Source: a virus. Taken from it: a stretch of DNA of 64,000 nt. Below the pieces are notes generated by a model. It was not told the origin of the DNA. It worked only from the letters and a program-made list of their open reading frames with translations, and did not search any database. The stretch spans positions 1-64,000 of IMG/VR virus record IMGVR_UViG_3300020274_000001. One strand, 5' to 3'. This document shows, piece after piece, positions 46,445 through 62,379 of the stretch (its first letter is position 1; each line of letters starts with the position of its first letter). A program made the position numbers and the translations under genes.

Positions 46445-46450
46445 TACACC

Positions 46451-47129: not shown

Positions 47130-47149
47130 CTTGGCCCAATGGGTCACAG

Positions 47150-47431
47150 ATGTCGTTTAATTACGCATTTATCAAAGCAGACACCAAGGCGGAAGTCCTT
47201 GAGGCAGTTTCAAACTTGCCTCATGAACCGAAGCAAGCGGTTTCTGGAACACAGGCCCATGGCCTGTCATTCAGCGGTCCTGCCGCTGATGAGAGAACAA
47301 CCATATGGTATGACTTGGCTAACCCCCAATACTCCATAATGTTCATCCGAACATTTGTCGACGAAAACGACTATGATGGTAGAGAAATCGACCCATCAGA
47401 GTGGGCGTCGACTATGGAAAGACTCTCATGA
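47150..47431 (+). CDS. Unknown acidic protein behind a hairpin leader
   Basis: 93 residues, alpha/beta, no cysteine. ATG overlaps the ACAGA tail of the leader hairpin at 47133-47145. No Shine-Dalgarno is present. No family recognised. Confidence 0.7.
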   Translation: MSFNYAFIKADTKAEVLEAVSNLPHEPKQAVSGTQAHGLSFSGPAADERTTIWYDLANPQYSIMFIRTFVDENDYDGREIDPSEWASTMERLS

Positions 47432-47438
47432 TGACCCA

Positions 47439-47546
47439 ATGGGTCACAGATTAGAGCACAAACAGACTGTTGTGGAGGTAGAGAACTGTCTCTGCCCAAA
47501 CGACAGGTGCGTTGACAATCCCTTAGACACGGTTCGGTGGTGCTAA
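47439..47546 (+). CDS. 35-residue cysteine microprotein with start inside its leader loop
   Basis: The only ATG in the frame is in the loop of the hairpin at 47433-47445; the codon after the ACAG tail is TTA. The product has C-x-C-x4-C and a final Cys. Either the loop ATG is used or a later GTG at 47472 is. Confidence 0.4.
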   Translation: MGHRLEHKQTVVEVENCLCPNDRCVDNPLDTVRWC

Positions 47547-47786
47547 GGAGTATATGAACCGAATAGGAATACAGTGATACAGAAGACCTATGTCACATCT
47601 GCCGGCGAGGCAGAGTAATCCGAAATTCGTCTTCGGTGATGTGTAGAACATATTTTAAGTCCAAAAGACCGAGAATATGTAATACACAAGGTAGGGATGG
47701 GAGTTCGAATATTAGATTTGAACATATATTTGCAAATATATGTGCCAAAAATAGTATTCGAACGTAGTAAATAGAGATGTGTGCAT
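47547..47786. other. Non-coding stretch with 22-bp palindrome
   Basis: No gene supported; an 18-codon frame at 47590 is likely chance. ACATATATTT-GC-AAATATATGT at 47722-47743 is a perfect 22-bp palindrome about 45 nt before promoter block copy 2, a likely regulator site. Confidence 0.5.
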
Positions 47787-47830
47787 CACATATGTGACTC
47801 ACGCACACTCATATAATGAAGGAGGAGAGG
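47787..47830 (+). promoter_or_regulatory. Repeated promoter-like block, copy 2
   Basis: CACATATGTG at 47787-47796, CACGCACACTC from 47800, ATATAATG, GAAGGAGGAGAG to 47829. Same layout as 46451 and 55541. Confidence 0.65.
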
Positions 47831-48162
47831 GGAGTATCCTAAAAGGACCCCTCAGAGACAACCAACTCCTTCACAGACGCCTAACCGGTCTTGTTTTGTC
47901 GTAAAAAACAATAAGAAGAACGGTAAACAGAAAGAGAGGGATAGAGGGTCCCTCACAGATTGGGCAGGGAAAGACATCTTGTTGATACTGTCTGTGTTTG
48001 CAAAGATTCTGCATTTATGTAGAATCTGCGTAAACTGCATTTAATTGCAAGCAGGCAGAGGAGAGATGGACGGAACTGTCCGAACACATACAACACAGAA
48101 AAGTTGTAACAGTAAAGCCGATGGTCACTTTGAGAAATCAACGTGACTGTCGGCTATTTTTT
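47818..48162 (+). ncRNA. Non-coding RNA from promoter block copy 2 to a terminator
   Basis: GAAGGAG (47818-47824) pairs with CTCCTTC (47866-47872), enclosing an AGGGG/CCCCT hairpin, and ACAGA follows as in copy 1. Downstream are AGATTCT/AGAATCT (near 48004-48027) and other hairpins, then a strong terminator. About 345 nt with no gene. Function unknown. Confidence 0.55.
48116..48162 (+). terminator. Hairpin plus T-run terminator
   Basis: AGCCGA-TG-GTCAC pairs with GTGAC-TG-TCGGCT around a 14-nt loop and is followed by ATTTTTT. It has the shape of a bacterial intrinsic terminator and ends the 47818 RNA. Confidence 0.7.
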
Positions 48163-48435
48163 ATGGCCCCATTGGGGTCTTAGGTTGGGATGAGCCATGT
48201 AAGCGGAACTCAAGATATGTCCATGAGAGACCTCTGTTGAGAATTAAAAAACTCACTTGCTAAATCATCCTCAGATTTGTGGGGGAACCCACATATCACA
48301 AGGAGGTGAAACCTTGAATTTATAATACACAACTTTGCGCAATTAGGAACCGATGATGGAGGGTGGATGCCCGTTGATGTCATTGTGCGGTGTAGCAAAG
48401 TGGGCCCCGTTAGAACATGCCGCCGCGGGCCACAG
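48163..48435. other. Leader region of the 48436 gene
   Basis: No gene seen. GGCCCC-ATT-GGGGTC near 48165 resembles the leader hairpins but lacks the ACAGA tail. CACAAGGAGG near 48298-48307 is a Shine-Dalgarno without a following gene of size. Confidence 0.4.
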
Positions 48436-48711
48436 ATGAATATCTGCATCCTTTATGCTGATAATCGTCATGTCGATAACATCGACATGTTGTTTCTCTC
48501 AATGAGAGAAAGCCCTGCACGAATCATCGTGCACGAAAATGGCGTTGAGAACGTTGGACTAATTCAGTCCATTCAACGCGAGGACGGCTCTGGGCGGTCG
48601 TTCAATGTCACCGTTTTGGTTGGCGACGAATACCACACGTATTACGTCGGAGAGTATGAAAATAATCCTACTCGACCACGACGAGGAATCAGAGTATTTG
48701 ATTCCGAGTGA
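48436..48711 (+). CDS. Unknown beta-rich protein behind a leader
   Basis: 91 residues starting at the ATG that overlaps CCACAGATG; an upstream ATG at 48367 is less likely because the leader lies between. Strand-rich with 'LFLSMRESPARIIVHENG' and 'VTVLVGDEYHTYYVG'. No family. Confidence 0.65.
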   Translation: MNICILYADNRHVDNIDMLFLSMRESPARIIVHENGVENVGLIQSIQREDGSGRSFNVTVLVGDEYHTYYVGEYENNPTRPRRGIRVFDSE

Positions 48712-48737
48712 CGGAGCCTATGGTTCCACAGATAAAC

Positions 48738-48872
48738 ATGCCAACTATTTCTAAAGTAGTCGGTCACGTCAACGGCACTCCTATATGGGCCGATGTAGAG
48801 ATTAACACCCTTTACACCTGCTCTGACTGCCAGCGTGGTCGATGCAAGATATCGCATGAAGACCAAGTTTGA
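48738..48872 (+). CDS. 44-residue zinc-binding microprotein
   Basis: CSDCQRGRC plus His gives a compact zinc site at the C-terminus. Leader hairpin GGAGCC-TAT-GGTTCC-ACAGA at 48713-48732, six bases before ATG. Confidence 0.6.
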   Translation: MPTISKVVGHVNGTPIWADVEINTLYTCSDCQRGRCKISHEDQV

Positions 48873-48942
48873 ATCTCATTTCAGACTAATCTTCGACGAA
48901 GTTAATGACTTCACAGAAACAATAGTTTCAGGATTGATAAAT

Positions 48943-49236
48943 ATGAACAAAAATAAGAAATCAAACAAAGCAAGCAAAATATACACAAAAATGTTCTGGG
49001 GACCTTTGCGTCGACTCGAACTTGGGCAATATGCCATGGCTACCAGCCGTGCTATTCCTAAGCCACCCGTAGTCAACTCGAAGGCCAAGAAGGACCCAAC
49101 TGGAAGAGTATCATTCGAAATGATGGGAATCCGGTATGACCTAACTTGGGCCCAACTGCGTGACCATTACCCGTTTTATGCGAGTATGGTGGCGAGTAGT
49201 GTGCAATCGTTCGAGGAGAGGGCTCAAGCCCAATGA
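48943..49236 (+). CDS. Small basic protein
   Basis: 97 residues from ATG 48943. The leader hairpin GAAGTT-AAT-GACTTC-ACAGA at 48898-48917 ends 25 nt before it. N-terminus is Lys/Asn/Ser-rich, then 'FWGPLRRLELGQY', suggesting nucleic-acid binding. The longer frame from 48835 would overlap the 48738 gene. Confidence 0.6.
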   Translation: MNKNKKSNKASKIYTKMFWGPLRRLELGQYAMATSRAIPKPPVVNSKAKKDPTGRVSFEMMGIRYDLTWAQLRDHYPFYASMVASSVQSFEERAQAQ

Positions 49237-49606
49237 CTCTCGGCACACACTGTTGCGTATAGAAAAACCAAGACCTCCAAAGGGGGCGAGTAGAACGACG
49301 ATTCCGTCTACTGGAGGTAAAAGTCAGTCAACAATACCTCTCGCATAACAGACCTTGCGTAAAGTTGACTTAGATTGGTCGTAATTGGTGATGTTAATCA
49401 TCAATTACGACAGTATGATGTTGGTCGTAATTGGTTAAAGTTAATGTAAGTCCCCTCTGAACTCAAGGGCATTCGACGCTCCCAATAGGCTGAGAACATC
49501 AAAAGGAGTGCGAATAATGGCAAGGTCTGAGACAAACTCAAAAATCCTTCGCTATTGAAAAGGTCGCACAGATTATGAGTTGGAGGGCACTCGTATATCA
49601 CACATT
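49237..49606 (+). ncRNA. Non-coding stretch with 14-bp hairpin
   Basis: No gene seen. TCGTAATTGGTGAT pairs with ATCATCAATTACGA (49379-49410, one G-T), and part of the arm repeats at 49426-49440. The region ends at a terminator, so it may be a transcript 3' end or an RNA gene. Confidence 0.4.
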
Positions 49607-49642
49607 AACCGTGTTGTATTATTACAACACGGTTGATTTTTT
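49607..49642 (+). terminator. 12-bp hairpin plus T-run
   Basis: AACCGTGTTGTA-TTAT-TACAACACGGTT followed by GATTTTTT; perfect stem. One base later the leader hairpin of the next gene begins. Confidence 0.8.
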
Positions 49643-49668
49643 GGGTTATTGTAACCCATAGAAAACCC

Positions 49669-49830
49669 ATGAAGTGTAAAACTTGTGGGCGACGTATGTC
49701 GAAGAGAACCAACTACCCGTTTGGTCGCTCAAACAAACCTATGCGTAACAAGCGCAGAGAGTCTGTTAAGCGAAACAGCGGTGGGGTTACCTCGATAACT
49801 TGCCAATACTGTGCTTACCGTAAAGAGTAA
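49669..49830 (+). CDS. 53-residue basic zinc ribbon
   Basis: CKTC and CQYC spaced by about 40 residues, with Arg/Lys-rich sequence between. Leader GGGTTA-TTG-TAACCC-ATAGA at 49643-49662. Likely nucleic-acid binding. Confidence 0.7.
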   Translation: MKCKTCGRRMSKRTNYPFGRSNKPMRNKRRESVKRNSGGVTSITCQYCAYRKE

Positions 49831-50050
49831 GCCAATTTGGTAAGTGGCCGCTGAAAGGCGGGTCGCGGGCGGTGACCGAACACCAAGGTGACTTTACCTA
49901 ATGTGCCTCGAACATTAAACTAAGTGAAGCAAGAATCTATTGAAAAACCAACTATGGCCCAACGTCTATGACCGAGGAGAACCACTGGTGGCGAGTAATT
50001 AGGTAGTAATGCATATATTAAACAAAAAAAAGGCCCCAAAGGGCCCCAGA

Positions 50051-50221
50051 ATGGCTAATGACTTTGTTATTGACCACGAGACCAATACCGCTTGGATGTG
50101 GGCCACCACAACCCAAGAAATGGTCGAAATGACAATGCTCCTTATGGGGAACATTGTTGCTGGAGGGTTCCGTCTGGAACAACATATCCAGCCAAACAGA
50201 CCGGATAATATGCCGGTTTGA
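50051..50221 (+). CDS. 56-residue unknown protein
   Basis: ATG directly after leader GGCCC...GGGCC-CCAGA (50032-50050). Met/Thr-rich helix in the middle. No motif. Confidence 0.6.
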   Translation: MANDFVIDHETNTAWMWATTTQEMVEMTMLLMGNIVAGGFRLEQHIQPNRPDNMPV

Positions 50222-50249
50222 TAAGGCCCCATGGGCCACAGATGTCAGA

Positions 50250-50351
50250 ATGACTATCGTTCTACGAATGCAAATCTTACCCGAGTGCGTTCAACATATA
50301 CACGTGTTATGTTCTCGAAGGCCCATGTGGTCGGTAGAGGTAGAATATTGA
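50250..50351 (+). CDS. 33-residue possible microprotein
   Basis: The ATG that overlaps the leader tail (50242) gives only three codons; this frame starts eight bases later and overlaps that stop (AATGAC). Doubtful, but the leader GGCCC-CAT-GGGCC-ACAG is typical. Confidence 0.3.
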   Translation: MTIVLRMQILPECVQHIHVLCSRRPMWSVEVEY

Positions 50352-50387
50352 GGGTGAATAAATGAAGTCAATGACTTCGCAGAAACC

Positions 50388-50624
50388 ATGCAACTTAATT
50401 TTGCAAATGGATGGGGAGTATCCATCGTCGACTTCGGTTACGGAGCCGAGGAAGGACTTTCCGAATTGGCCGTCTTGAAAGACGGTAGACTGCACTACGA
50501 AAACCCCGTTGCTCGGGGCGACGTTCGCGGTTGGCTTACCGATGACGATGTGGGTAAACTCACATCCGAGGTTGAGTCTTGGTCTTCGGACCAAACTTTT
50601 CCCGAATGGGAAGAGGAAGAATGA
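50388..50624 (+). CDS. Unknown small protein, tandem paralogue 1
   Basis: 78 residues. Leader GAAGTC-AAT-GACTTC-GCAGA ends 4 nt before the ATG. Shares 'LNFANGWGV', 'LxVLKxG' and 'WxxxQTFPxxEEE' with the next gene, so the two arose by duplication together with their leader position. Acidic end. No named family. Confidence 0.7.
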   Translation: MQLNFANGWGVSIVDFGYGAEEGLSELAVLKDGRLHYENPVARGDVRGWLTDDDVGKLTSEVESWSSDQTFPEWEEEE

Positions 50625-50639
50625 CCTAATGGGTCTCAG

Positions 50640-50909
50640 ATGCAAGAAATAATTGATTTTACTTCATCTCTTTATTTTGGAGATGAAGAAAAACTGAATT
50701 TTGCAAATGGTTGGGGAGTCTGCGTCGGCCTGATGATGGCTGGTTGTGGACAGCGGCTCTTCCGCTTGACCGTCCTGAAGAATGGTGACCCATACTTCAA
50801 CGACGACAGAGAATGGAGATGGCTTAAGGAGGCAGATGTCGCAAGACTGTCTGCCATCGTCAAGTCATGGACACCTAACCAAACTTTCCCCGGAGGGGAA
50901 GAAGAATGA
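50640..50909 (+). CDS. Unknown small protein, tandem paralogue 2
   Basis: 89 residues. Leader GACCT-AAT-GGGTC-TCAGATG. Same 'LNFANGWGV' core as the previous gene, plus a 15-residue N-terminal extension and a Cys-containing loop. Ends in GGEEE. Confidence 0.7.
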   Translation: MQEIIDFTSSLYFGDEEKLNFANGWGVCVGLMMAGCGQRLFRLTVLKNGDPYFNDDREWRWLKEADVARLSAIVKSWTPNQTFPGGEEE

Positions 50910-50924
50910 CCTAATGGGTCGCAG

Positions 50925-51101
50925 ATGGAAGAAATTCCACTATTTTTTTTGGACAGAAAGCACCTCTGGGTGGATAAGGACCTCAAGCCTACTGACGAGT
51001 GGGAACGAGCCGAATTCATCATGGAAGGGTCACTTCCAGTTCGAATTGCGAAACCCGGCTCTTTTGGAGCATGGGTTCACGAACTCCGCAAGACGGAGTA
51101 A
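50925..51101 (+). CDS. 58-residue unknown protein
   Basis: Leader GACCT-AAT-GGGTC-GCAGATG. Strand-rich, aromatic. No motif. Confidence 0.6.
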   Translation: MEEIPLFFLDRKHLWVDKDLKPTDEWERAEFIMEGSLPVRIAKPGSFGAWVHELRKTE

Positions 51102-51118
51102 CCGGCCAATGGCCACAG

Positions 51119-51355
51119 ATGTATTCCAATACATATGGATTCAGCAGGAATCCCCCCATTTATAGGGGCATTCCCGGAGCAGGAAAAAGCGTTGCCGCTT
51201 TTGACTTGAGAAAACTTAACGAAATCGAAGTTACTGATTTTATTACAGAGTTCGAAAAAGCACTTTCGGGAATACAAGAAGAAAGAAAACTGATTGCCGC
51301 AGATAAAATCCGAAAGGCATTCCGTGCCTATATGGCGAGAACACGCGGAAAATGA
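51119..51355 (+). CDS. Small protein with an orphan P-loop segment
   Basis: 78 residues behind leader GGCC-AAT-GGCC-ACAGATG. 'IYRGIPGAGKS' near residue 14 equals the P-loop context 'IYRGLPGSGKS' of the kinase at 54216, but the rest of a kinase is missing and the remainder is a charged helix pair. Looks like a fusion of a captured P-loop fragment to another sequence. Confidence 0.6.
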   Translation: MYSNTYGFSRNPPIYRGIPGAGKSVAAFDLRKLNEIEVTDFITEFEKALSGIQEERKLIAADKIRKAFRAYMARTRGK

Positions 51356-51377
51356 CCCAATGGGTCGCAGAGTAAAC

Positions 51378-52013
51378 ATGTCAAACATAACTGATAATGG
51401 AAACCGCATGGTCGTTGATGACGACCTACATACCTACGCAATGGTTGCGTGGGTGGCGTCGCTGGCGCATAAAGACCAGCAACGTAAAACTGGAGGCGCG
51501 TATATTATGCACCCGTTGGGTGTATCGTGCCTAATCGACCCTGCATGGTCGAAACTTGATAACATGTGCGTGGCCGTTTGCCACGACGTCCTTGAAGACG
51601 TTCCACACATGTTGGATTACGCTAAGGAAGAACTCACTAAATATGGGTTTGGAATTAGTGCTGAAACAGAGCCTTGGGACTTCCTTTCCCCGAAAGGAAA
51701 ACTCACCCATTTGCTGGCTATATGCAGCAATGGGAACACGAGATGGGCTCGCTCTATTACTTCTAAAGTGATGGAACTTACGGTAGTTTGGCCTCGGCCA
51801 GACCATCCGGAAGATGACCCTAAAGACAAAGTTGCGAAGAAGGCGTGGGAAGTCGAGAGGATTCAGAACCTTTCGATGGATGCCGCATCCGTGACGAAGG
51901 CCGATAAGACCTTCAATTCGCTGAACCCAATCCCGGGTCGAGACCCGGTGAAGGAGGCGGCAAAGTATCAGCGATACTTTGACGCTGTTGACGCTCGAAT
52001 GTCGGAGGAGTAA
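51378..52013 (+). CDS. HD-domain hydrolase (RelA/SpoT-hydrolase-like)
   Basis: 211 residues. 'AHKDQQRKTGGAYIMHPLGV' followed by 'CHDVLEDVP' is the signature of the HD superfamily branch that includes (p)ppGpp hydrolases (MESH1, SpoT) and related nucleotide pyrophosphohydrolases. The metal His/Asp set (His, HD, ED) is present; a synthetase domain is not. It may remove alarmone or modified nucleotides during infection. Leader GACCC-AAT-GGGTC-GCAGA, six bases before the ATG. Confidence 0.8.
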   Translation: MSNITDNGNRMVVDDDLHTYAMVAWVASLAHKDQQRKTGGAYIMHPLGVSCLIDPAWSKLDNMCVAVCHDVLEDVPHMLDYAKEELTKYGFGISAETEPWDFLSPKGKLTHLLAICSNGNTRWARSITSKVMELTVVWPRPDHPEDDPKDKVAKKAWEVERIQNLSMDAASVTKADKTFNSLNPIPGRDPVKEAAKYQRYFDAVDARMSEE

Positions 52014-52045
52014 GACCGACTCGGTTCCCTAATGGGGGACCCCAG

Positions 52046-53083
52046 ATGTCAGACGACATTGAATTGTATGATGAGGTAGACCTCATCAAAAAGATGACGA
52101 GAGATTTGAAAAAATCGTCATCTTCATTGAAGAAACCGGAAGTTCGGTTTCTGGTTGATGCATACTACCGTATGCAGGAAAAGCGTATCCAATACGCCAG
52201 CCAGATTCGAACTATGAAGGAATTCGGTGAGCCGCACGAACTACTAACATGGTTCTACACGCAGGCTCATACCCTTGAAAAGCAAATTGCTGGAGCACTC
52301 GATGCTTACAGCACGAGCAATAAAGTGGGACAATGGATGCGAAGCATTCCGGGCATTGGTCCGGTAATTGCGGCTGGATTCATGGCTCACCTTGATATTG
52401 CTCCGTGGCGTTGTCATAACGTCGGACTCAAGGGCAAGAAAAACCTTCCTTGCACCGCTGAAAAGGGTGCCTGCACAGACAATTGTGGCCACGAGCCTAT
52501 CAATTACGCTGGACAATGGCACACGTTTGCAGGAATGAATCCTCGCATCCAGTGGGAAAAGAAAACACGCCGACCATGGAACACAGCACTCAAAACGCTG
52601 TGTTACAAGTTGGGTGAATCGTTCGTAAAGGTTCAAAACCATAAGGACGATTTCTACGGTCAAATCTTCGTTGCGCGTAAATCCCAAGAATGGGAGCGCA
52701 ACTTCAATGGTGAGAATGCCAAAGCGGCAGAACTTGCTTTGAAGAAAAACATCGGAAAGAACACGAATGCCTACAAGTGGTATTCTGGAGCAGTGGCCAG
52801 TGATTGGGCACGTTCAGAGTGGGAATCCGATAAGAAAGGACAGAAGTTTGGAGGAGCAACGCTCCCCAAGAAAGCAATTGTTGAAGACGGAACACCTATG
52901 CTTCCGCCGGCACACATTCACGCACGAGCGCGACGCTATGTCGCCAAGTTGTTCTTGTTCCACCTGCATCAAGTTATGTGGGAAGTTGAACAAGGTGAAT
53001 CACCGCCACCACAGGCTTTCTTCCAAGACAGTGAAAACATCATTGAGGTGCCAACTGTCTTCCCGAACTCTCCGTTCGTTTGA
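52046..53083 (+). CDS. Protein with IS110-type C-terminal (Transposase_20-like) domain
   Basis: 345 residues. A helical N-terminal part (1-90) leads to 'SIPGIGPVIAAGFMAHLDIAPW' (about 108-130), the helix-hairpin-helix start of the IS116/IS110/IS902 C-terminal domain, then a Cys-rich insert (CTAEKGACTDNCGHE), 'YAGQWHTFAGMNP' and 'FYGQIFVARK', and near the end 'ARARRYVAKLFLFHL'. The IS110 N-terminal DEDD (RuvC-like) domain is missing and no flanking repeats are seen. It is therefore probably a domesticated DNA- or RNA-guided-recombinase-derived protein or just a helix-hairpin-helix DNA binder. Leader GGTTCCCT-AAT-GGGGGACC-CCAGATG, the longest stem but one. Confidence 0.65.
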   Translation: MSDDIELYDEVDLIKKMTRDLKKSSSSLKKPEVRFLVDAYYRMQEKRIQYASQIRTMKEFGEPHELLTWFYTQAHTLEKQIAGALDAYSTSNKVGQWMRSIPGIGPVIAAGFMAHLDIAPWRCHNVGLKGKKNLPCTAEKGACTDNCGHEPINYAGQWHTFAGMNPRIQWEKKTRRPWNTALKTLCYKLGESFVKVQNHKDDFYGQIFVARKSQEWERNFNGENAKAAELALKKNIGKNTNAYKWYSGAVASDWARSEWESDKKGQKFGGATLPKKAIVEDGTPMLPPAHIHARARRYVAKLFLFHLHQVMWEVEQGESPPPQAFFQDSENIIEVPTVFPNSPFV

Positions 53084-53112
53084 AGAAAAACAACGGCCCC
53101 AGTGGCCATAGA

Positions 53113-53265
53113 ATGATGTCTTTTGAGACTGAACATGGATTGGTAACAATCCACTTTGATGATAAGAGTTTGATGATTACTTCCAGTAAGCAGGTAATGA
53201 ATATTGAACTCTTTCAAGCCTTCATTGGCTACATGGAACGTATTAATGCTGTTCCGGCTCAATGA
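53113..53265 (+). CDS. 50-residue unknown protein
   Basis: Leader GGCC...GGCC-ATAGA then ATGATG. Strand-rich; no motif. Confidence 0.6.
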   Translation: MMSFETEHGLVTIHFDDKSLMITSSKQVMNIELFQAFIGYMERINAVPAQ

Positions 53266-53272
53266 GCCATAG

Positions 53273-53455: not shown

Positions 53456-53498
53456 AGGCCAATGGCCATAGAACCAACCATCATACAAGAATTGCACT

Positions 53499-53600
53499 AT
53501 GCACGAATGGTTCACAGAGCACGCTATTAATGAGGAACTGCAAAAGCGGCGAATGCTCATAGAACCAAATCAGAGCCAATGTAATATATTTGAAAAGTAA
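53499..53600 (+). CDS. 33-residue helical microprotein
   Basis: Leader GGCC-AAT-GGCC-ATAGA ends 26 nt before ATG. Charged helix. Weak. Confidence 0.4.
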   Translation: MHEWFTEHAINEELQKRRMLIEPNQSQCNIFEK

Positions 53601-53609
53601 GGTTCACAG

Positions 53610-53771
53610 ATGACACAAAAAAGTTGTCCGAATTGTGGAAAGGTCTACGAGACCGATTTCCCTACTCGTGAAGAAGCAGTTGCCAATGGTGGCACCGCTA
53701 TTCAAAGAGAGCAACACCAAACAGGAATCTGTTCCGACAAATGTTGGGATGAATTCCTTGGTCTTGCTTGA
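53610..53771 (+). CDS. 53-residue zinc-binding protein
   Basis: CPNC and CSDKC spaced by about 35 residues. ATG overlaps TTCACAGATG; the leader stem is weak here (TGAA/TTCA). Confidence 0.65.
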   Translation: MTQKSCPNCGKVYETDFPTREEAVANGGTAIQREQHQTGICSDKCWDEFLGLA

Positions 53772-53791
53772 AACGGTCTTATGGACCACAG

Positions 53792-54037: not shown

Positions 54038-54062
54038 TGCCAGACGGTCCTATGGACCACAG

Positions 54063-54200
54063 ATGAAATGTCCACACTGTGACAAATCTATCGCTGTCCG
54101 GCTTGAACAACCGGGCAAGAAGGCGGCTCGCCGTCGAACTCTTCGTGCCCGTAAGGCAGAGAAGTTGAGAGAAATCCAACCATCTAACGAAGAAGAATGA
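54063..54200 (+). CDS. 45-residue basic protein with CPHC knuckle
   Basis: MKCPHCDK at the start, then 'KKAARRRTLRARKAEK' as a basic helix, likely nucleic-acid binding. Leader GGTCC-TAT-GGACC-ACAGATG. Confidence 0.65.
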   Translation: MKCPHCDKSIAVRLEQPGKKAARRRTLRARKAEKLREIQPSNEEE

Positions 54201-54215
54201 CCCAATGGGTCGCAG

Positions 54216-54803: not shown

Positions 54804-54821
54804 CGGTCCAATGGACCATAG

Positions 54822-54985: not shown

Positions 54986-55001
54986 CCAAGCGTAGATTAA
55001 A

Positions 55002-55094
55002 ATGAGTATGAAATCGAAGACGCAGACTTTCGTGGTCTGCATGACTTTGATGATGTTCGGTCTTTTCACGACCGTCATCATGCAACTCGGCTAA
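55002..55094 (+). CDS. 30-residue membrane peptide
   Basis: Lys/Ser/Thr N-terminus and one hydrophobic helix (FVVCMTLMMFGLFTTVIM region). No Shine-Dalgarno; long structured leader. Confidence 0.5.
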   Translation: MSMKSKTQTFVVCMTLMMFGLFTTVIMQLG

Positions 55095-55109
55095 TGGCCA
55101 CAGAGCAAC

Positions 55110-55313: not shown

Positions 55314-55371
55314 TTCTTAACGGCCAATGGCCACAGAAAACTGTTAAAGACAATCCGAAGTATGGAGTGAC

Positions 55372-55500: not shown

Positions 55501-55503
55501 TCG

Positions 55504-55582
55504 CACATATGTGCCAAAAAAAACCATAGAACAGGGCACAACATATGTGCCTCACGCACACTCATATAATGAAGGAGGAGAG
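55504..55582 (+). promoter_or_regulatory. Repeated promoter-like block, copy 3
   Basis: CACATATGTG at 55504 and again ACATATGTG at 55541, CACGCACACTC from 55553, ATATAATG, GAAGGAGGAGAG to 55582. The doubled palindrome also fits copy 2, whose upstream palindrome is at 47722. Confidence 0.65.
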
Positions 55583-56192
55583 GACCACCAATCCAGAATC
55601 CTTCATAACCCGAGTGTCGCGGAATACTAATTCCGAATGTCACTCGGGTTAGTGTTATTTCATAGAAGGGAGTTTGCTCGAAGCCGAGCATCCCCACAGA
55701 ATACCTACGTGTAAACCCACAAGTGCCTCTTCGGAGGTTGGCCTAATCAGAGGTCCTCGGCGAAAGCCGACCTAATTGTGGTCTCGTAGGGGACACCACC
55801 CCTCCGGCTTGGCCGGTTGGAGTGTGGATTGTGTGTCTTACCGGGGAGTAGCATGAAGACTCCCAAGGTAGGGCTTGGGTATGGTCCGTTCAAAAGGACC
55901 ATAATGCGCAATTGAACACAAGAAGAAAAAAGACAGGAAAATAGTTTGCCGGTAATCAACCCGGGGCTATGGACGTGTTCGCCTTCGGGCGAAGAAGATG
56001 TGCCGGGAAGAGGAAACCCGGTTGTTCTTGGAAACATTACTGCCGTATTCTGGCTGGCACCAGAAGGAGTAGTGGAGAAAGGAGACCCCCTTGGGGGGAT
56101 ACGGAATCATGCTGGGCCTGCACTAACACTGCGGGGTTCCCGGTGATTCTAACGCGCCTGCGGGTTGATAACCGCAGGCCACCGACCATGAC
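55571..56192 (+). ncRNA. Large structured non-coding RNA
   Basis: Starts with GAAGGA...TCCTTC (55571-55576 with 55599-55604). Then AACCCGAGTG...CACTCGGGTT (near 55606-55650), AGGT-TCGGC-GAAA-GCCGA-CCT (about 55751-55773), GGTCC/GGACC (55883-55900), TTCGCC-TTCG-GGCGAA (55978-55993), CCGGG/CCCGG near 56012-56030, CCCCCTT-GGGGGG near 56090 and GCCTGCGG/CCGCAGGC (56156-56179). GNRA and UUCG-type tetraloops and lack of a good reading frame indicate a folded RNA of about 600 nt. I do not recognise the family. Confidence 0.6.
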
Positions 56193-56444
56193 GTGAAAAC
56201 CAAAAGGTCGGCATCTGACACAACCGAGAAATCGGACTTTAGTAGATTAACACTCGAACGAGATTTTCTGAATTGTGGACCTGCCGGTTTAAGACCGGAC
56301 GGGCCGAAAGGTATCAATTGGACTGAGGGACCGCTGAATAAGCGGGTCGGCGTTTTAGTCGTTTACCGAAACAAGGAATGGACACGTATCAACGATAATG
56401 ACTTATCACCAATGAACGTCTTACGGTTAGTTCCGTTCCTGTGA
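56193..56444 (+). CDS. Doubtful 83-residue frame inside the RNA region
   Basis: GTG-started frame; the first half overlaps hairpins (GACCGCT/AGCGGGTC), the second half ('GVLVVYRNKEWTRINDNDL') looks protein-like. Could be a real small gene or part of the RNA. Confidence 0.3.
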   Translation: MKTKRSASDTTEKSDFSRLTLERDFLNCGPAGLRPDGPKGINWTEGPLNKRVGVLVVYRNKEWTRINDNDLSPMNVLRLVPFL

Positions 56445-56536
56445 ATAACTCAAATGCTCTTGGAGAATGTAGCCGTAAGACGTTAAATTCTCTGTCAATA
56501 GAGCCTCCCCATGCCTCCCCGGATGGACACACGTAG
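56445..56536. other. Short non-coding gap
   Basis: Nothing recognised apart from AATTCTCTGTCAATAGAG, a weak hairpin. Confidence 0.3.
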
Positions 56537-56698
56537 ATGATGAACTTATTTCATCCGCCACGCTTTGTGAAAGCAACTACGACAGCAGACAAGGAAGGAA
56601 CATCTTCCTTAACTGCATCATTGAAAGCACTTCACGGCGACATGGTGCGAAGAGGATATCCTCCGAGCACTACAACAACTAAAACAAGAGTGGATTGA
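56537..56698 (+). CDS. 53-residue Thr-rich microprotein
   Basis: ATGATG start behind CACGTAG, a possible degenerate leader tail. Thr/Ser/Lys-rich with aromatic N-terminus. Its stop lies within the terminator that follows. Confidence 0.45.
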   Translation: MMNLFHPPRFVKATTTADKEGTSSLTASLKALHGDMVRRGYPPSTTTTKTRVD

Positions 56699-56715
56699 AG
56701 TTCACTCTTTTTTTT
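56687..56715 (+). terminator. Hairpin plus T-run terminator
   Basis: AGAGTG...CACTCT around a 10-nt loop, then TTTTTTT. Ends the transcript begun at promoter copy 3. Confidence 0.65.
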
Positions 56716-56779
56716 GGGATTCGAAACATAGAATATGAAATTTATTTAGAATGAACGAACTCGAATCTCTTAGGTTAAA

Positions 56780-58264
56780 ATGTCAAACAAAAAGACAAAC
56801 AACAACCGCAAATCCGGTAATGCCGGAAAGGGAGGCAATGCCTCCAAGCGAGGAAACCACAAGCAGGGGCGCGGGAAACCAGCCTCTCGTGATGACCTCA
56901 AAGGTGGGAGCAGTAATGGTTACAACCATCGCTCTCCTATCGGAAATCGTAAGTCAAAGAGACACAACACTCACCGAGTGAGTGCTGATAAAGCCTCTGG
57001 CAAGCAAAACACGAAACCGAAGATGATGCCGAAAGGTAGAATTCCTCGGAACAGCAAGGCACCAATGGTTCCTTGGGTAGAACTTCCAAAGTCTGCTCAA
57101 GTCCACCATTACTACTTTGTTATTCGTGAATGTCTTGAAGGTGCTTACGAATGGGATGCGAAAAACAAGGCTCGAAACCTTGGAATTCGCCAACTCGACC
57201 TGCACGGCTCAACAGCCGGCTCTGTCGAGTCTATGTTGACCCAAACCGCTCGACTACGTCGTGATTGGAGAGCCGTTGTTGGTATTCTAAGAATGCTACA
57301 CGCGGACGACCTAATCTCGGCTTCATTTGTCGAGAAGATACTGAACAACCATCCTCTAACGGGTGCTAAGTCAGTAAGGGTCACCCAAGACACTGAATTC
57401 GTTAGCGATTACATTCGTGACAAGAGTTCTCTGTCGAACAAATCATGGGTAAAAGATGCGAAAGCATCGTATACTCGTGCACTCAAACGCATTCGTGCTG
57501 ATTGGGAGAAGGAAACGGTTGACGCTGAAAAAGCGAAATACCCAGACCTCTCTGATGAACAATACGCACATGCGGCCAGCGTTGCATGGAAAGCAATGTC
57601 GAATGACCGAAAGGCACCGACAATTGAAGTGGATGGTGAATCTATTCTGTGTAAAACAGAGGATGCCTTCGTTTCTGCTCACATGCAACGTCGAGCACGC
57701 AAGGAAGCCGCAAGGCTCCCTGCCCTATACCGCCTCAAAGGTGGAGTATCTTACAAGATGTTGGATAAAGACGGCGAGATTGTTTCTCGTTCCGACTTCG
57801 TTAACATCGAATACGCTGTAAGAAACAACGGCAAAATTTTCATTGCCGTCGTCAATGGAGGAGGAAGAGGAAAGGTGGCTAATTCACCATTCCGCTCCGA
57901 AGCATACAACATGAAATCCCGTAAGGGAGATGAGTTGCACATTGATGATGTTGGAACGCCCACAGAGGTGGAAACCAACGTAATTCAGCGTGAGATACCC
58001 GAAACCGAGGGAGCAAAACTCCCATCAGACCCTAAGCGTCTGAAAGAGGTTCTTGGTGACGAAAAGAGGATGAATAAAATCCTTGAACCGGACATGCATC
58101 TTCCCGTCGAGGAAGTTATTGACCGGATGAACCAAGCACAATGGGGAGTTCCTTCGCAATCGAAAGATAAAGCGAAGAAACGCTCAAAGAAGGCGACGAG
58201 AAAGGTGGACATGTCCGCTAACCGTCGTGCTGGTCGACGCTCTGACAAGAGCGAAGATGAGTGA
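56780..58264 (+). CDS. Unknown 494-residue protein with basic termini
   Basis: Low-complexity N-terminus (about 1-100) rich in Asn, Lys, Gly and Arg, a helical middle ('QLDLHGSTAGSVESMLTQTARLRRDWRAVV...'), a strand-rich domain near 290-400 and a Lys/Arg-rich C-terminus (SKDKAKKRSKKATRK). Basic ends and neutral core suggest a DNA/RNA-binding protein. No active-site motif is seen. Upstream is the T-run terminator; no leader hairpin is obvious. Confidence 0.65.
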   Translation: MSNKKTNNNRKSGNAGKGGNASKRGNHKQGRGKPASRDDLKGGSSNGYNHRSPIGNRKSKRHNTHRVSADKASGKQNTKPKMMPKGRIPRNSKAPMVPWVELPKSAQVHHYYFVIRECLEGAYEWDAKNKARNLGIRQLDLHGSTAGSVESMLTQTARLRRDWRAVVGILRMLHADDLISASFVEKILNNHPLTGAKSVRVTQDTEFVSDYIRDKSSLSNKSWVKDAKASYTRALKRIRADWEKETVDAEKAKYPDLSDEQYAHAASVAWKAMSNDRKAPTIEVDGESILCKTEDAFVSAHMQRRARKEAARLPALYRLKGGVSYKMLDKDGEIVSRSDFVNIEYAVRNNGKIFIAVVNGGGRGKVANSPFRSEAYNMKSRKGDELHIDDVGTPTEVETNVIQREIPETEGAKLPSDPKRLKEVLGDEKRMNKILEPDMHLPVEEVIDRMNQAQWGVPSQSKDKAKKRSKKATRKVDMSANRRAGRRSDKSEDE

Positions 58265-58288
58265 TGTCGGGGGCCAATGGCCCCCCCA

Positions 58289-58738
58289 GTGCAAACCGAT
58301 ACTAACACTATTGATTACACGCAAGCCGTCAATGACGGTATAGTCGTTCTTCAGAACGGCGTCCGGGTGCTTAACAGTTCACCCCACTCCTTCGTCTTCG
58401 ACGATGGGACTACGGTGCCGTCTTGCGGCATCAGCCTCAACTGTGACTTTGTCGAAAACGAGGCTAACCCGAAAGACATTTTCAGCGACCTCACGTTTGT
58501 GACGATTGCGAAGATGCCGCGAGCAGAGGGCATTGCGTTCCTCGACGTCGTTCCAATCGACGTTCTCGTGCTCGGGTCTGCACATGCGGCAGAAGCCTAT
58601 GGCTTTCCTGTCGTTATGCCGGTTCCAACACCGGATTCTAAAAGAGGCTCCTTCGCTGATAGGAGAGTCTGCTCTGACCGTTTCACGGTTACCCAGACTC
58701 CACCCGTTCGTTCGGGGGTCTCTTTGGACAGTCTTTGA
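58289..58738 (+). CDS. Unknown protein, GTG start after hairpin
   Basis: 149 residues. The leader GGGGGCC-AAT-GGCCCCC-CCAG runs straight into GTG 58289, in the place where other copies have ATG. The in-frame ATG at 58277 is in the loop. Beta-rich with 'VFDDGTTVPSCGISLNCDF'. No family. Confidence 0.65.
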   Translation: MQTDTNTIDYTQAVNDGIVVLQNGVRVLNSSPHSFVFDDGTTVPSCGISLNCDFVENEANPKDIFSDLTFVTIAKMPRAEGIAFLDVVPIDVLVLGSAHAAEAYGFPVVMPVPTPDSKRGSFADRRVCSDRFTVTQTPPVRSGVSLDSL

Positions 58739-58768
58739 GACGGCCAATGGCCACAGTAAACATACAAG

Positions 58769-58806
58769 GCGATGCCTGCGGAAACGCAGTCATCGCTTAT
58801 TTTTTT
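58769..58806 (+). terminator. Hairpin plus T-run terminator
   Basis: GCGATG-C-CTGCG-GAAA-CGCAG-T-CATCGC then TTATTTTTT. GAAA tetraloop and a 1-base mismatch. It separates the hairpin-leader genes from the DUF1257 gene, which has TATA-like TTCATATACT at 58817-58826. Confidence 0.8.
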
Positions 58807-58846
58807 GGGCGAGATATTCATATACTCTCGCCGTAGAGGTAAAGAC

Positions 58847-59341
58847 ATGAGTCATTACACTGAAGTAAAGTCGGCATTCAGCAGTGAACACACTACTGAA
58901 ATGGTGTCGGCTTTGGAGGAATTGTGGCCAGAAGCCACAATTCTTGTTAGCGAAGAAGGAACCGCTAAATGCCGTGGATGGCCGGGGCAACAGCCCCGTA
59001 ACTGCCACGTTGTTGTTCGTTTCCGAAACCCAAATATCGAAAAGCAAGGAAACTATGATATTGGGTTCATCAAGAGAGCCGATGGCTCTTATGCGATGAT
59101 TTCTGATTGGTATGCTTGCACATACCCAGAAGCAACGAACGACCAAGGGCGAACCGGTTCTAACGCAGTAGAGGGAATGATTAAGCCACTCTACACTAAG
59201 AATCTGATGAAGAAGACTTTGAAGAAGAACAAGCGATTGCGAGGCTTCAAAGACATCAGTAAGAAGAACGACATTATCACAAAGAAGGATAAGAACGGAA
59301 AGAGTGTTCGATACGCTCGACTACGTTACCAAAGGACGTGA
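58847..59341 (+). CDS. DUF1257 protein (Ycf35-like)
   Basis: 164 residues from ATG 58847, placed by the terminator and TATA-like element upstream. 'MSHYTEVKSAF' and 'GNYDIGFIKRADGSYAMISDWYA' match the Ycf35/DUF1257 family of cyanobacteria, plastids and phages. The C-terminus is Lys-rich. In other genomes DUF1257 is found with DUF2997 and Ycf46-type ATPases; all three are present here. Biochemical role unknown. Confidence 0.8.
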   Translation: MSHYTEVKSAFSSEHTTEMVSALEELWPEATILVSEEGTAKCRGWPGQQPRNCHVVVRFRNPNIEKQGNYDIGFIKRADGSYAMISDWYACTYPEATNDQGRTGSNAVEGMIKPLYTKNLMKKTLKKNKRLRGFKDISKKNDIITKKDKNGKSVRYARLRYQRT

Positions 59342-59345
59342 TTTA

Positions 59346-59564
59346 ATGGGTAAAACGAAATCAGAAATAATCGAGGTTCTAATCCCTGTGGATGACCCCG
59401 ATGTGCCCATCAGTATTGATGCGCTGAATTTCGAAGGTGACGCTTGTTCACTTGCCACCGCAGAGTTTGAAAAGGCTCTCGGTAAGGTCGAGTCGAAGAA
59501 GTTGAAACCAGAGTTTCGAAAGAAAAAGGTCAAGGCAAAACGCAACATTCAGTTGGGTAATTGA
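59346..59564 (+). CDS. DUF2997 protein
   Basis: 72 residues, ATG five bases after the DUF1257 stop. 'ISIDALNFEGDACSLATAEFEKALGKVESKKLKPEF' matches the family's Gly-x-x-Cys...LG-x-V...KPE(Y/F) pattern. Basic end. Partner of DUF1257. Confidence 0.8.
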   Translation: MGKTKSEIIEVLIPVDDPDVPISIDALNFEGDACSLATAEFEKALGKVESKKLKPEFRKKKVKAKRNIQLGN

Positions 59565-59696
59565 CCGGAGGAATATCCTCCATAGATGGAAGTATAACAA
59601 CCCATACGCTTGCGTGTGAATTGAATTAGTTCAATTCATACGCACTTGAAACCCTTGCCCTAATGGGGCGAGCATAATCCTCGTGAGGAGGAGGTT

Positions 59697-59858
59697 ATGG
59701 AACGCAAAGACCCGAATCGTAATTACGTCTCCTTGGGAGATGTAATGCGACAGAGGCAACGGCAAAATTCAATTACAGCACCACAGACAAAACGTCCGTG
59801 CTCTCCTGTTTTTGACTCTGAGCACTATCCTCATAGAAAGCAGACGATATTAAAATAG
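59697..59858 (+). CDS. 53-residue basic protein
   Basis: Strong Shine-Dalgarno (GAGGAGGAGG) seven bases upstream, unusual in the right-hand module. Arg/Gln/Asn-rich ('RQRQRQNS'). GCCCT-AAT-GGGGC at 59657-59669 is a leader-like hairpin. The stop is directly followed by the structured RNA. Confidence 0.55.
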   Translation: MERKDPNRNYVSLGDVMRQRQRQNSITAPQTKRPCSPVFDSEHYPHRKQTILK

Positions 59859-60185
59859 ACACACCACATAGTAAGAAGACCGCAACGTCTGCGTATAAGT
59901 CTTGGTCGAAAGGCCAACAGTGGTGTGTCGTTCGGTGAACGGGTGATGCCGCATCGAGGGGTCCGACAATAGAGGGCGAGAGCCGCATGTTTGACGGGGT
60001 TTCACCGCCTCGGAGTGCCGGAATATGGTGTCGCAACCATTTCACAAACTCAATTATCACGGACTTTGCTAAAGCGGTTATAAGCCGCAGGCGAAATCTT
60101 CTGAACCGAATATGGGAATACCACCGTCTGGTAAACGGCCCCATGTTCTTAGGGTGAAAACTCGAGGCATTGCGAGAGTGCAATG
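59858..60185 (+). ncRNA. Structured RNA domain
   Basis: GACACACCAC (59858-59867) pairs perfectly with GTGGTGTGTC (59920-59929), enclosing TTGG-TC-GAAA-GG-CCAA (GAAA tetraloop) and another hairpin. GTTC-GGT-GAAC, GATG/CATC and further hairpins follow, and GCATTGC-GAGA-GTGCAATGC lies at about 60165-60184 (GNRA-type GAGA loop). No gene in this stretch. Family unknown. Confidence 0.6.
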
Positions 60186-60199
60186 CATTCGATGACCAT

Positions 60200-60348
60200 A
60201 CGAGTATTCGTATCTCGCGGGTCGCACAAAATTTCTCGCCAGACTACGTCTGGAACGAAATTTAGAAGCGACAAGAAGCGAATTCTAATGAATACTCCAC
60301 CTACGCACAATACACTCATGCACATCCCCGCGAGATACGAATACTCGT
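60200..60348. repeat. 22-bp perfect inverted repeat enclosing a nested cruciform
   Basis: Arms at 60200-60221 and 60327-60348 are exact reverse complements. Between them GTCGC/GCGAC, AAATTTC/GAAATTT and CCAGAC-TAC-GTCTGG nest in order (about 60222-60275). Candidate replication origin, recombination site or RNA end. Confidence 0.75.
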
Positions 60349-60611
60349 GCCGCGGCATGCATGAAAGACGTGTAAGTTGTCTATGACGAGCATATGGCGT
60401 TGGAATATCTTCTAACGACTATTATGCACGGCGTGCACAAAGGTCCTATCGTAACGTTAGGGCCCATGGATATCTATCGAATGATAAAAACAAATTATAG
60501 TGCAGGAATATAGTCTTGCAACTTATAATGACTTAATCAACGAACATCCAATGAATATTTACCGGTATCTTGACACCCGTTGTTAACCAACAGTTGTCCT
60601 AAGTATTGGGA
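60349..60611. other. Non-coding stretch
   Basis: No gene seen. Small hairpins such as TGCAC-GGC-GTGCA (60425-60437) occur. Confidence 0.4.
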
Positions 60612-60670
60612 AAACCATTCGTTTGGTATGAAGAACCATTTGTTATTGAGCCAGAGAAGACTACGTGTCT
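60612..60670 (+). pseudogene. Fragment matching C-terminal part of the 1647 gene
   Basis: Encodes PFVWYEEPFVIEPEKTT, compared with PFVWYEEPIVIEPEKTV in the intact gene (about 2060-2112). DNA differs by many synonymous changes. Flanking sequence does not match and no start is present. Confidence 0.75.
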
Positions 60671-60700
60671 TACGGTTAAACAATGGAGATGTAACAGAAA

Positions 60701-60735
60701 GATGTTCTAAGAGGAATTCTTAGAGCGTTTTTTGT
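60701..60735 (+). terminator. ATRTTCTAAG motif with hairpin and T-run
   Basis: GATGTTCTAAG then GAGGAATTCTTAGAGCG: CTAAGA pairs with TCTTAG, followed by TTTTTT. First member of the ATATTCTAAG series. Confidence 0.5.
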
Positions 60736-60854
60736 CGACAGTATATAAAGACAGGAATTTTAAGCCTGCATATAAACATTTGACACCGACAAGATGTATC
60801 TTACCCGAGACGGTAAGGATACAACTAAAGAAGACTGAGGTCTCTGACGAGCAC

Positions 60855-61187
60855 TCAATCTTCTCTACTTGTCTTCTGTTGCATCCATCCTTGTGGGACA
60901 TTGTCCCATTTTGCTTTCGCTACGGAAAGGAAGTTGCGTAACTGCGACTTACCCTCCGATGAGGGAGCGGCGTCCCCACCATTATTTGGCTGGGATGTTA
61001 AGGAAAGTTCGTCCAACCCGTCCTCCTCACTTGAGGTGGAAGGTAAAGACATCTCGTTGGTTCCAAGTGACTCTGCATGTAAGGTTGTAACCTCTTGCAA
61101 GGTGTCACCACCATCACTGGAAAGAGACGTAGAATCTTCTACATTTTCTCTTTCTTCGGCGATGGAATCGGTAGTGTTCTTGGACAT
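60855..61187 (-). CDS. Ser/acidic-rich protein on the reverse strand
   Basis: 110 residues from ATG 61187, with a TATA-like GTATATATTTC inside the inverted repeat at 61205-61224 about 18-37 nt upstream. Ser, Thr, Glu and Asp-rich, flexible first 80 residues, and a helical C-terminus ('LRNFLSVAKAKWDNVPQGW'). It is the only reverse-strand gene right of 45.8 kb. Possibly a regulator or phospho-type linker protein; no family. Confidence 0.5.
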   Translation of the reverse strand: MSKNTTDSIAEERENVEDSTSLSSDGGDTLQEVTTLHAESLGTNEMSLPSTSSEEDGLDELSLTSQPNNGGDAAPSSEGKSQLRNFLSVAKAKWDNVPQGWMQQKTSRED

Positions 61188-61204
61188 AACCAGAGGTATG
61201 GTTT

Positions 61205-61224
61205 CCGAAATATATACATTTCGG
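61205..61224 (-). promoter_or_regulatory. Inverted repeat over a TATA box
   Basis: CCGAAAT-ATATAC-ATTTCGG: a 7-bp palindrome with the TATA in its centre, before the reverse-strand gene. Likely self- or cross-regulated. Confidence 0.5.
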
Positions 61225-61439
61225 GACAATATCTGCTGTAAAACATATTCCAAGGACAAATTGTGGTATTGAACGATACTGCATTCCCATAAACAGGTAG
61301 CAAAGTTCCTCAAGAGTTTTGCTAATACAGTGGCATCATACTGACGTCACAAGTAATCCAGAGATACTCTGGGCATAACCTGCAATATAGGGTAAGAAGA
61401 TATTCTAAGCACAATTGGTGGGTATCCCCACCCCGTGGC

Positions 61440-61503
61440 CATCTCAACTGGGGCTCTTCGAACAGAGGAGTATCCACAAAAGGTGAATACGGAAAGGCAA
61501 TTT
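61440..61503 (+). pseudogene. Fragment matching the middle-N part of the 1647 gene
   Basis: Reads HLNWGSSNRGVSTKGEYGKAI against HWGYENKGVWPKGEYGKGI around 1737-1800 of the window. The frame ends soon after. Upstream GGTGGG-TAT-CCCCACC hairpin at 61417. Confidence 0.7.
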
Positions 61504-61701
61504 GCAATTGCAAAATTCTTGTTGATAAGTAATTCAACAGGGCAGTGATATCGATGATGATGGTAGTCACTCTATTGATAGAGTAGATAAAGCCAATATA
61601 GTCAACAAAGATATTCTAAGTGTATTAACTATTGTAAAGAATAAGTTTTGCCACGCTCGCGTCTCATGATGTTAGTTGGTCAAAACTGCAAACTAAAGAA
61701 A

Positions 61702-61776
61702 ATGGAATTACGACCGTATTACGACAAGCCGGCTCGGCTTGAGTTTGAGAAAGGTCGTGAGAAACATAGTCTTTGA
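61702..61776 (+). pseudogene. Fragment matching the N-terminus of the 1647 gene
   Basis: ATG and MELRPYYDKPARL, as MELRPYYDRPTAV in the intact gene, then unrelated residues to a stop after 24 codons. It lacks the Shine-Dalgarno of the parent. Confidence 0.75.
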
Positions 61777-62361
61777 AGAATAACATAAGGATAGGACATT
61801 CTTATTCAAGAGTGGAAGTATACCCGGTGACCTGACTTTATTGTCAGGGAGAACACAAAAATGTAGAGCAGTCTATCGAATAGACATTGAAATCTACGTA
61901 ATAACAAACCGGCTTCACGCATGCGCAAGAAGAACAACATGTTCTTCCAGCATATGCGGGTTGGACTAATGCTTGAAACATATTCTAAGACTATTATTGA
62001 CATGAAAGGTCGCTTCAAACGTTCCACCCCGGTGGGACCTCTGTGAGCACTACTTTGTTCGGAAGAAAGAAGAGGCGAGAAACGATTCTGCCTTGTTTCA
62101 GAACCATGTCAAGAACATATTCTAAAGCATATCTGCTACTAAATGATGGTAACGAAGAAGGCTGTGTCTTTCTTCTTTCCAATCTTCTTGCTTGTGCAAG
62201 AGCGTGGTAGTAAGATTGCTTGGACTTGCAATCAATTACGATGGCGTATGCGTATGCGTTTTGGAGGGCTGTTTAGCAGTGTGTCCCCGACCCCGGGAAG
62301 CGTTATCAGCGCATTACACACGAAGCCCACCGCCTCGAGGTTAAACACCCCTCGGTTATAC
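61777..62361. other. Non-coding stretch before the AAA ATPase
   Basis: No gene supported. Contains two ATATTCTAAG copies, CCACCCCGGTGG near 62024 and other small palindromes. Confidence 0.4.
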
Positions 62362-62379
62362 GTGACTAAGTCACACAGA

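What the first reader, a model, noticed from the sequence alone, without database searches (positions are those of the whole stretch)
47133..62379. About 27 covarying hairpin leaders place or replace ribosome sites in the right-hand module
Nearly every small gene from 47 to 62.4 kb follows a stem of 4-8 bp, a 3-base loop and RCAGA or ATAGA, whose last A is often the A of ATG. Stems GGCC/GGCC, GGTCC/GGACC, GACCC/GGGTC, GGCTC/GAGCC, GAAGTC/GACTTC and GTGAC/GTCAC differ but pair, so structure is selected. Genes left of 46 kb use Shine-Dalgarno sites instead. A cut at CAG|ATG would turn one long RNA into many leaderless mRNAs, a processing system not known to me. Alternatives are a viral-polymerase pause or start signal, or a binding site for a viral protein.
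Basis: partly seen in the sequence, partly recalled or inferred. Interest (0 to 1): 0.93.

Follow-up and report, generated by a model that had tools for sequence, protein, structure and literature searches.

The report
Viral TIGR guide RNAs between genes
In one module of a large archaeal-type virus most genes are separated by a small RNA hairpin ending in A(C/T)AG, and many of these gaps also hold 44-letter units built like the two-part guide RNAs of the recently described TIGR-Tas system, whose protein the virus also encodes, which suggests that guide RNAs and gene messages are cut from the same transcript by one signal.

Summary
The hairpins are real. In 46.9-92 kb of this 140-kb virus, + strand only, I find about 69 short hairpins and 41 longer stem units, all followed by (A)YAG; controls elsewhere are at background. 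Stems differ but pair (24 distinct types). The longer units read stem-AAYCA-N8-GWAWTRYA-N8-GWA-stem: two free 8-nt stretches between conserved boxes, the architecture published for TIGR stem-loop guide RNAs. The virus encodes a Tas protein inside the same module (window 52046-53083; profile hit to the TasR structure 9MTY, E=5e-13, and to TasH, E=2e-4; no nuclease domain found). So part of the feature is a TIGR-TasA system in a new arrangement: guides scattered singly to in threes between viral genes, sharing the AYAG linker with the gene-to-gene hairpins. Hairpins contain or abut the upstream stop codon; AYAGA is kept even where no start codon follows; Shine-Dalgarno sites are rare here but common in the left arm. 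My best explanation is a linker-processing signal that frees guides and separates mRNAs, often leaving AUG at the 5' end. Cleavage itself is inferred. No relative with the same layout and no spacer target was found.

The parts
52046..53083 (+). tas gene: Tas (Nop/IS110-like) protein, 345 aa, no nuclease domain found (TasA type)
   Evidence: phmmer to 9MTY (TasR) E=9.8e-5 in three colinear segments; two-sequence profile to 9MTY E=4.8e-13 and to TasH E=2.3e-4; PHROG phrog_4285 E=2e-29
52023..52045 (+). short hairpin GGTTCCC-taatg-GGGGACC + CCAG, directly before the tas ATG
53457..53470 (+). short hairpin GGCC-aat-GGCC plus ATA linker, first element of the three-unit guide cluster
53471..53513 (+). 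TIGR-like guide unit 1: GAACC-AACCA-tcatacaa-GAATTGCA-ctatgcac-GAAT-GGTTC
53517..53558 (+). TIGR-like guide unit 2: GAGCA-CGCTA-ttaatgag-GAACTGCA-aaagcggc-GAA-TGCTC
53562..53605 (+). TIGR-like guide unit 3: GAACC-AAATCA-gagccaat-GTAATATA-tttgaaaa-GTAA-GGTTC, then ACAG and ATG at 53610
46979..47003 (+). stem GGCT/AGCC with long loop + ATAG before ATG 47004
47133..47149 (+). hairpin GGCCC/GGGTC + ACAG before ATG 47150
47433..47449 (+). hairpin GACCC/GGGTC + ACAG after a stop codon, no gene start follows
48402..48435 (+). stem GGCCC/GGGCC with long loop + ACAG + ATG
48713..48731 (+). hairpin GGAGCC/GGTTCC + ACAG
48898..48916 (+). hairpin GAAGTT/GACTTC + ACAG
49643..49661 (+). hairpin GGGTTA/TAACCC + ATAG
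50032..50049 (+). hairpin GGCCC/GGGCC + CCAG
50225..50241 (+). hairpin GGCCC/GGGCC + ACAG + ATG
50364..50382 (+). hairpin GAAGTC/GACTTC + GCAG
50623..50639 (+). hairpin GACCT/GGGTC + TCAG + ATG
50908..50924 (+). hairpin GACCT/GGGTC + GCAG + ATG
51104..51118 (+). hairpin GGCC/GGCC + ACAG + ATG
51354..51370 (+). hairpin GACCC/GGGTC + GCAG, ATG 7 nt later
53095..53111 (+). hairpin GGCC/GGCC (5-nt loop) + ATAG + A + ATG
53256..53272 (+). hairpin GGCTC/GAGCC + ATAG + ATG; upstream stop overlaps loop and stem
53775..53791 (+). hairpin GGTCT/GGACC + ACAG + ATG
54046..54062 (+). hairpin GGTCC/GGACC + ACAG + ATG
54199..54215 (+). hairpin GACCC/GGGTC + GCAG + ATG
54805..54821 (+). hairpin GGTCC/GGACC + ATAG after a stop codon, no gene start follows
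55089..55103 (+). hairpin GGCT/GGCC + ACAG, ATG 6 nt later
55322..55336 (+). hairpin GGCC/GGCC + ACAG, no gene start follows
58742..58756 (+). hairpin GGCC/GGCC + ACAG
59567..59585 (+). hairpin GGAGGA/TCCTCC + ATAG
62362..62378 (+). hairpin GTGAC/GTCAC + ACAG + A + ATG of the AAA+ ATPase gene

Best explanation
The 47-91.5 kb module is transcribed as polycistronic RNA and punctuated by a helix ending in a G-C pair followed by AYAG. Shown by sequence: the helices, the AYAG linkers, a Tas protein, and 41 units with TIGR stem-loop guide architecture lying between linkers. Inferred: an RNase, of the host or dependent on Tas, cuts at or beside the linker. That would release guide RNAs of about 44 nt to load TasA, leave the upstream mRNA with a 3' hairpin at its stop codon, and leave the downstream mRNA starting at or a few nt before AUG. 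TasA, lacking a nuclease, would use the two 8-nt spacers to bind DNA and silence it rather than cut it.
For: Dual-spacer core searched without arms: 25 hits, all on + strand in 46.9-92 kb, 25/25 with complementary arms of at least 4 bp (one through a G-U pair); 1 hit on the other strand, without arms; 0.75 expected. Column information about 0 in both 8-nt spacers and high in AAYCA, GWAWTRYA and GWA. Spacer A 8 nt in 41/41, B in 37/41. Tas homology and a helical, coiled-coil-like N-terminal part. Published TIGR stem-loop arrays: two 8-12-nt spacers flanked by box C/D-like motifs, variable palindromic stems, processing at linkers (PMC12045711). AYAGA kept in 39/39 boundaries that lead into a unit, where no start codon lies. 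Stop codon inside, overlapping or within 3 nt of 55 of 69 short hairpins. All 14 unit-to-unit junctions join units with different arms. SD rare in the module.
Against: No transcript data. The short hairpins hold no spacers, and a shared linker does not prove a shared enzyme. Guides are scattered in ones to threes, unlike the published arrays of mostly 5-15 units. No spacer target in the own genome above chance. No RNase specific for such hairpins was recognised. The one Tas relative in IMG/VR shows no clear copy of the layout.
Confidence: 0.5

Rival explanations
1. TIGR guides and gene hairpins are separate: the 44-nt units are TIGR-TasA guides, while the short hairpins plus AYAG-AUG are a translation-initiation element that replaces Shine-Dalgarno sites, with no cutting.
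For: 50 of 110 boundaries have ATG at 0-1 nt; SD missing at these genes.
Against: AYAGA is equally kept at 39 boundaries without any start codon, and YAG at 11 without a gene; ATG can lie 2-12 nt away. A stop codon in the loop means a terminating ribosome would melt the hairpin.
Confidence: 0.25
2. Promoter repeats, as in halovirus HF2: the box GWAWTRYA at -29 to -22 is a TATA-like element and transcription starts at AYAG|A.
For: Position fits archaeal TATA boxes; HF2 intergenic repeats are proven promoters with TATA at -26 (PMC8707807); cluster K phages have 46-47-bp inverted-repeat elements with putative promoters (PMC11373665).
Against: The box belongs to a pseudosymmetric 8/8 spacer layout; arms co-vary; short hairpins have no box; the virus's CATATGTG/ATATAAT-like elements look different.
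Confidence: 0.1
3. DNA-level cassette junctions: hairpins are recombination or insertion sites that shuffle genes and units.
For: Tas proteins are related to IS110 recombinases; gene-hairpin arrays resemble cassettes; mobile short palindromes exist (own knowledge).
Against: No two units share their spacers, so there are no recent copies; scored symmetrically, mid-stem mismatches are G-U (4) and not A-C (0), which suggests RNA but is a small count.
Confidence: 0.1

Closest known systems
TIGR-Tas stem-loop arrays (PMC12045711)
   Same: Tas protein with Nop/IS110-like domain; units with two short spacers (8-12 nt) flanked by twice-repeated box C/D-like motifs, variable palindromic stems, linkers between units; found in phages and archaeal viruses.
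   Different: Guides dispersed in ones to threes across 38 kb between protein genes; linkers shared with spacer-free hairpins at about 69 gene ends; box motifs read AAYCA/RYA and GWA rather than CCA and UG; spacers 8+8.
Halovirus HF2 class I/II intergenic repeats (PMC8707807)
   Same: Repeats between early/middle genes of an archaeal tailed virus; HF1-like viruses give the best PolB hits.
   Different: HF2 repeats are a few conserved-sequence promoters; no spacer layout and no co-varying stems are described.
Cluster K mycobacteriophage SAS/ESAS (PMC3203893, PMC11373665)
   Same: Two-tier start-associated elements restricted to non-structural genes; a subset has an upstream inverted-repeat element of about 46-50 bp.
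   Different: SAS is a fixed 13-mer with an SD core; ESAS arms do not support RNA pairing.
Processing that makes leaderless or monocistronic mRNA (MazF at ACA sites; phage T7 RNase III sites, from memory)
   Same: Cleavage near AUG, or at intercistronic hairpins, shapes phage or stress mRNAs.
   Different: No MazF or RNase III homologue was recognised here; the hairpins are far shorter than RNase III sites.

Membership tests
TIGR-Tas | Tas protein (Nop domain of the IS110/TasR/TasH kind) | tested here: met
   9MTY (named in PMC12045711 as the TasR structure) E=4.8e-13, TasH E=2.3e-4; the Pfam Nop model itself gives no hit
TIGR-Tas | Two spacers of 8-12 nt per unit, flanked by motifs repeated twice | tested here: met
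TIGR-Tas (stem-loop type) | Variable palindromic stems in place of edge repeats | tested here: met
TIGR-Tas | Box C = CCA and box D = UG (may diverge together) | tested here: inconclusive
   AAYCA/RYA and GWA at both positions; same pattern, different letters
TIGR-Tas | Array of several units near the tas gene | tested here: inconclusive
   Three units lie 0.4 kb downstream of tas; 38 more are spread over 66.2-91.5 kb in small clusters
TIGR-Tas | Units processed to small RNAs bound by Tas | not testable with these tools
   needs RNA sequencing and pull-down
TIGR-Tas | Spacers direct binding to DNA on both strands | tested here: inconclusive
   no own-genome target above re-paired controls; other genomes not searched
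HF2-type promoter repeat | TATA-like box at about -26 of the start site | tested here: inconclusive
   a box at that place in the 44-nt units, none before the short hairpins
Cluster K SAS | 13-bp GGGATAGGAGCCC with SD core | tested here: not met
   stems vary and pair, no SD core
Rfam families | match at gathering score | tested here: not met
   only the tRNA

The most novel reading that the evidence does not exclude
One helix-AYAG signal does two jobs at once: it cuts dozens of TIGR guide RNAs out of gene-to-gene gaps and cuts the same long transcript into single, nearly leaderless mRNAs, so that expressing these viral genes automatically makes the guides for a nuclease-free TasA DNA-binding system.
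Probability: 0.4. Interest if true: 0.93.

Novelty: new variant of a known kind. Interest (0 to 1): 0.85.

Why it matters
The role and the processing of TIGR systems in viruses are open questions. A virus with over 40 guides spread through its own gene-to-gene gaps, and with the same linker at most gene ends of the module, would link guide production to mRNA maturation and gives a defined 47-nt period in which to look for the processing cut. It also suggests that TIGR systems can be missed when only compact arrays are searched for.

Tried and rejected
Relatives: IMG/VR scans with the tas and AAA+ proteins and with DNA patterns found nothing; the genome-contig scans also failed (58, 115). Rpb1 relatives (L009-L087) carry the hairpins only at chance level and share no other gene except one weak hit; PolB relatives are haloviruses. 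A bulge-helix-bulge, K-turn or H/ACA reading was considered and dropped because the layout does not fit (no opposed 3-nt bulges, no paired GA, no internal pocket; by inspection). Promoter reading: box found only in units. Rfam: nothing. TBP, TFB, Rpb2, Nop Pfam models: no hit in the record. Self-targets of spacers: none above control in either geometry. AlphaFold models of Tas are poor overall (pLDDT 39 and 44), so no fold search was made.
Full report
WHAT THE RECORD IS. The window is bases 1-64000 of a 140,336-bp virus record. It encodes a group II chaperonin closest to archaeal thermosomes, a fused archaeal-type RNA polymerase large subunit, a B-family DNA polymerase whose best phage hits are HF1-type haloarchaeal tailed viruses, MCM and two small primase subunits. 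It is an archaeal-type virus, probably tailed, without close relatives in the collections. No relative with this hairpin or guide layout was found.

WHAT IT SITS BETWEEN. The upstream stop codon lies wholly in the loop of 24 of 69 short hairpins, overlaps the stem in 13 and ends 0-3 nt before it in 18. Of 110 helix-YAG boundaries, 50 are followed by ATG at 0-1 nt, 10 by a start at 2-12 nt, 39 by another unit and 11 by no gene. AYAGA is kept in all 39 boundaries that lead into a unit. So the linker is not there only to place a ribosome. SD sites are found at the first ATG of 22/32 ORFs in the left arm, 8/24 in the right arm and 4/42 in the module, so the module differs from the arms.

THE LONGER UNITS. 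To the right of 64 kb, and once in the window (53471-53605), the short hairpin is followed by one to three units of 41-49 nt bounded by AYA. Their arms differ and pair (GAACC/GGTTC, GAGCA/TGCTC, GAGCG/CGCTC, GAATC/GATTC, GGACT/AGTCC). In all 14 tandem junctions neighbouring units carry different arms, which avoids pairing with the wrong partner. Aligned on their central box, the units read arm-AAYCA-N8-GWAWTRYA-N8-GWA-arm, with almost no information in either N8. Spacer A is 8 nt in 41/41 and B in 37/41 (that parser breaks ties towards 8). A search for the core alone, without arms and with both spacers fixed at 8, gives 25 hits, all in the module and on the + strand, all with complementary arms of 4 bp or more; the other strand has 1 hit without arms, and 0.75 are expected.

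IDENTIFICATION. The TIGR-Tas paper (PMC12045711; [quoted passage not shown] The same module here encodes a Tas protein at 52046-53083. A single-sequence search hits 9MTY, which that paper names as its TasR structure, in three colinear segments at E=9.8e-5. A profile made with its only IMG/VR relative (L101, about 35% identity) hits 9MTY at 4.8e-13 and TasH at 2.3e-4. PHROG phrog_4285, annotated 'transposase', matches at 2e-29. No HNH or RuvC domain was recognised, so it is of the TasA kind. I regard the TIGR identification as about 90% certain.

MECHANISM. Shown: the structures, the linkers, the guide layout and the Tas protein. Inferred: one signal, a helix closed by G-C followed by AYAG, is cut; this frees guide units, gives upstream mRNAs a hairpin at the 3' end and gives downstream mRNAs AUG at or near the 5' end. 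Leaderless transcripts are common in haloarchaea (PMC8303175), and cutting near AUG has a precedent in MazF. The step most in doubt is whether the spacer-free hairpins use the same enzyme as the guide linkers. With symmetric scoring, non-Watson-Crick pairs inside stems are G-U (4) rather than A-C (0), which favours RNA over DNA, but the number is small.

RIVALS. A translation element explains the 50 boundaries next to ATG but not the 50 others that lead into a unit or no gene. A promoter reading fits the position of the central box and has a close precedent in HF2 (PMC8707807), but the box is half of a pseudosymmetric layout and the short hairpins lack it. Recombination junctions remain possible.

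WHAT IS MISSING. RNA data, a host, relatives with the same layout, and targets. Spacer pairs do not match the virus's own genome above re-paired controls.

Noticed in passing
window 38529-43523 (-): Fused archaeal-type Rpb1 (1664 aa) without any Rpb2, TBP or TFB hit in the record: the virus may replace one subunit of the host RNA polymerase.
   Followed up: partly
window 46440-46560, 47780-47880, 55530-55610: Three copies of a promoter-like block (CA)CATATGT(G)...CGCACACTCATATAATGAAGGAGGAG, each followed by an ORF-poor stretch; in two of them GAAGGAG pairs with CTCCTTC before ACAGA. Possible structured non-coding RNAs.
   Followed up: partly
window 61400-62125: ORF-poor region with four copies of ATATTCTAA.
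   Followed up: no
window 31255-31612 and 38220-38535: Other intergenic repeats: CGTTWTACCCCCTAYT and CATACGTTAGGG(T/G), two copies each.
   Followed up: no
window 56715-56765: Degenerate dual-spacer unit (AACA-N8-GAAATTTA-N8-GAAC), model E=0.034.
   Followed up: no
L005:637-680 (record 64637-64680): Unit with another arm pair, GGACC/GGTCC, and tail TTAG before ATG.
   Followed up: partly
L101:19907-20336: Around the only Tas relative: five copies of TGGGAACCCA (begins UG, ends CCA), some right after stop codons, possibly TIGR edge repeats.
   Followed up: partly
L005:16677-17903 and L006:7635-8957: Two different small-primase-like proteins in one virus.
   Followed up: no
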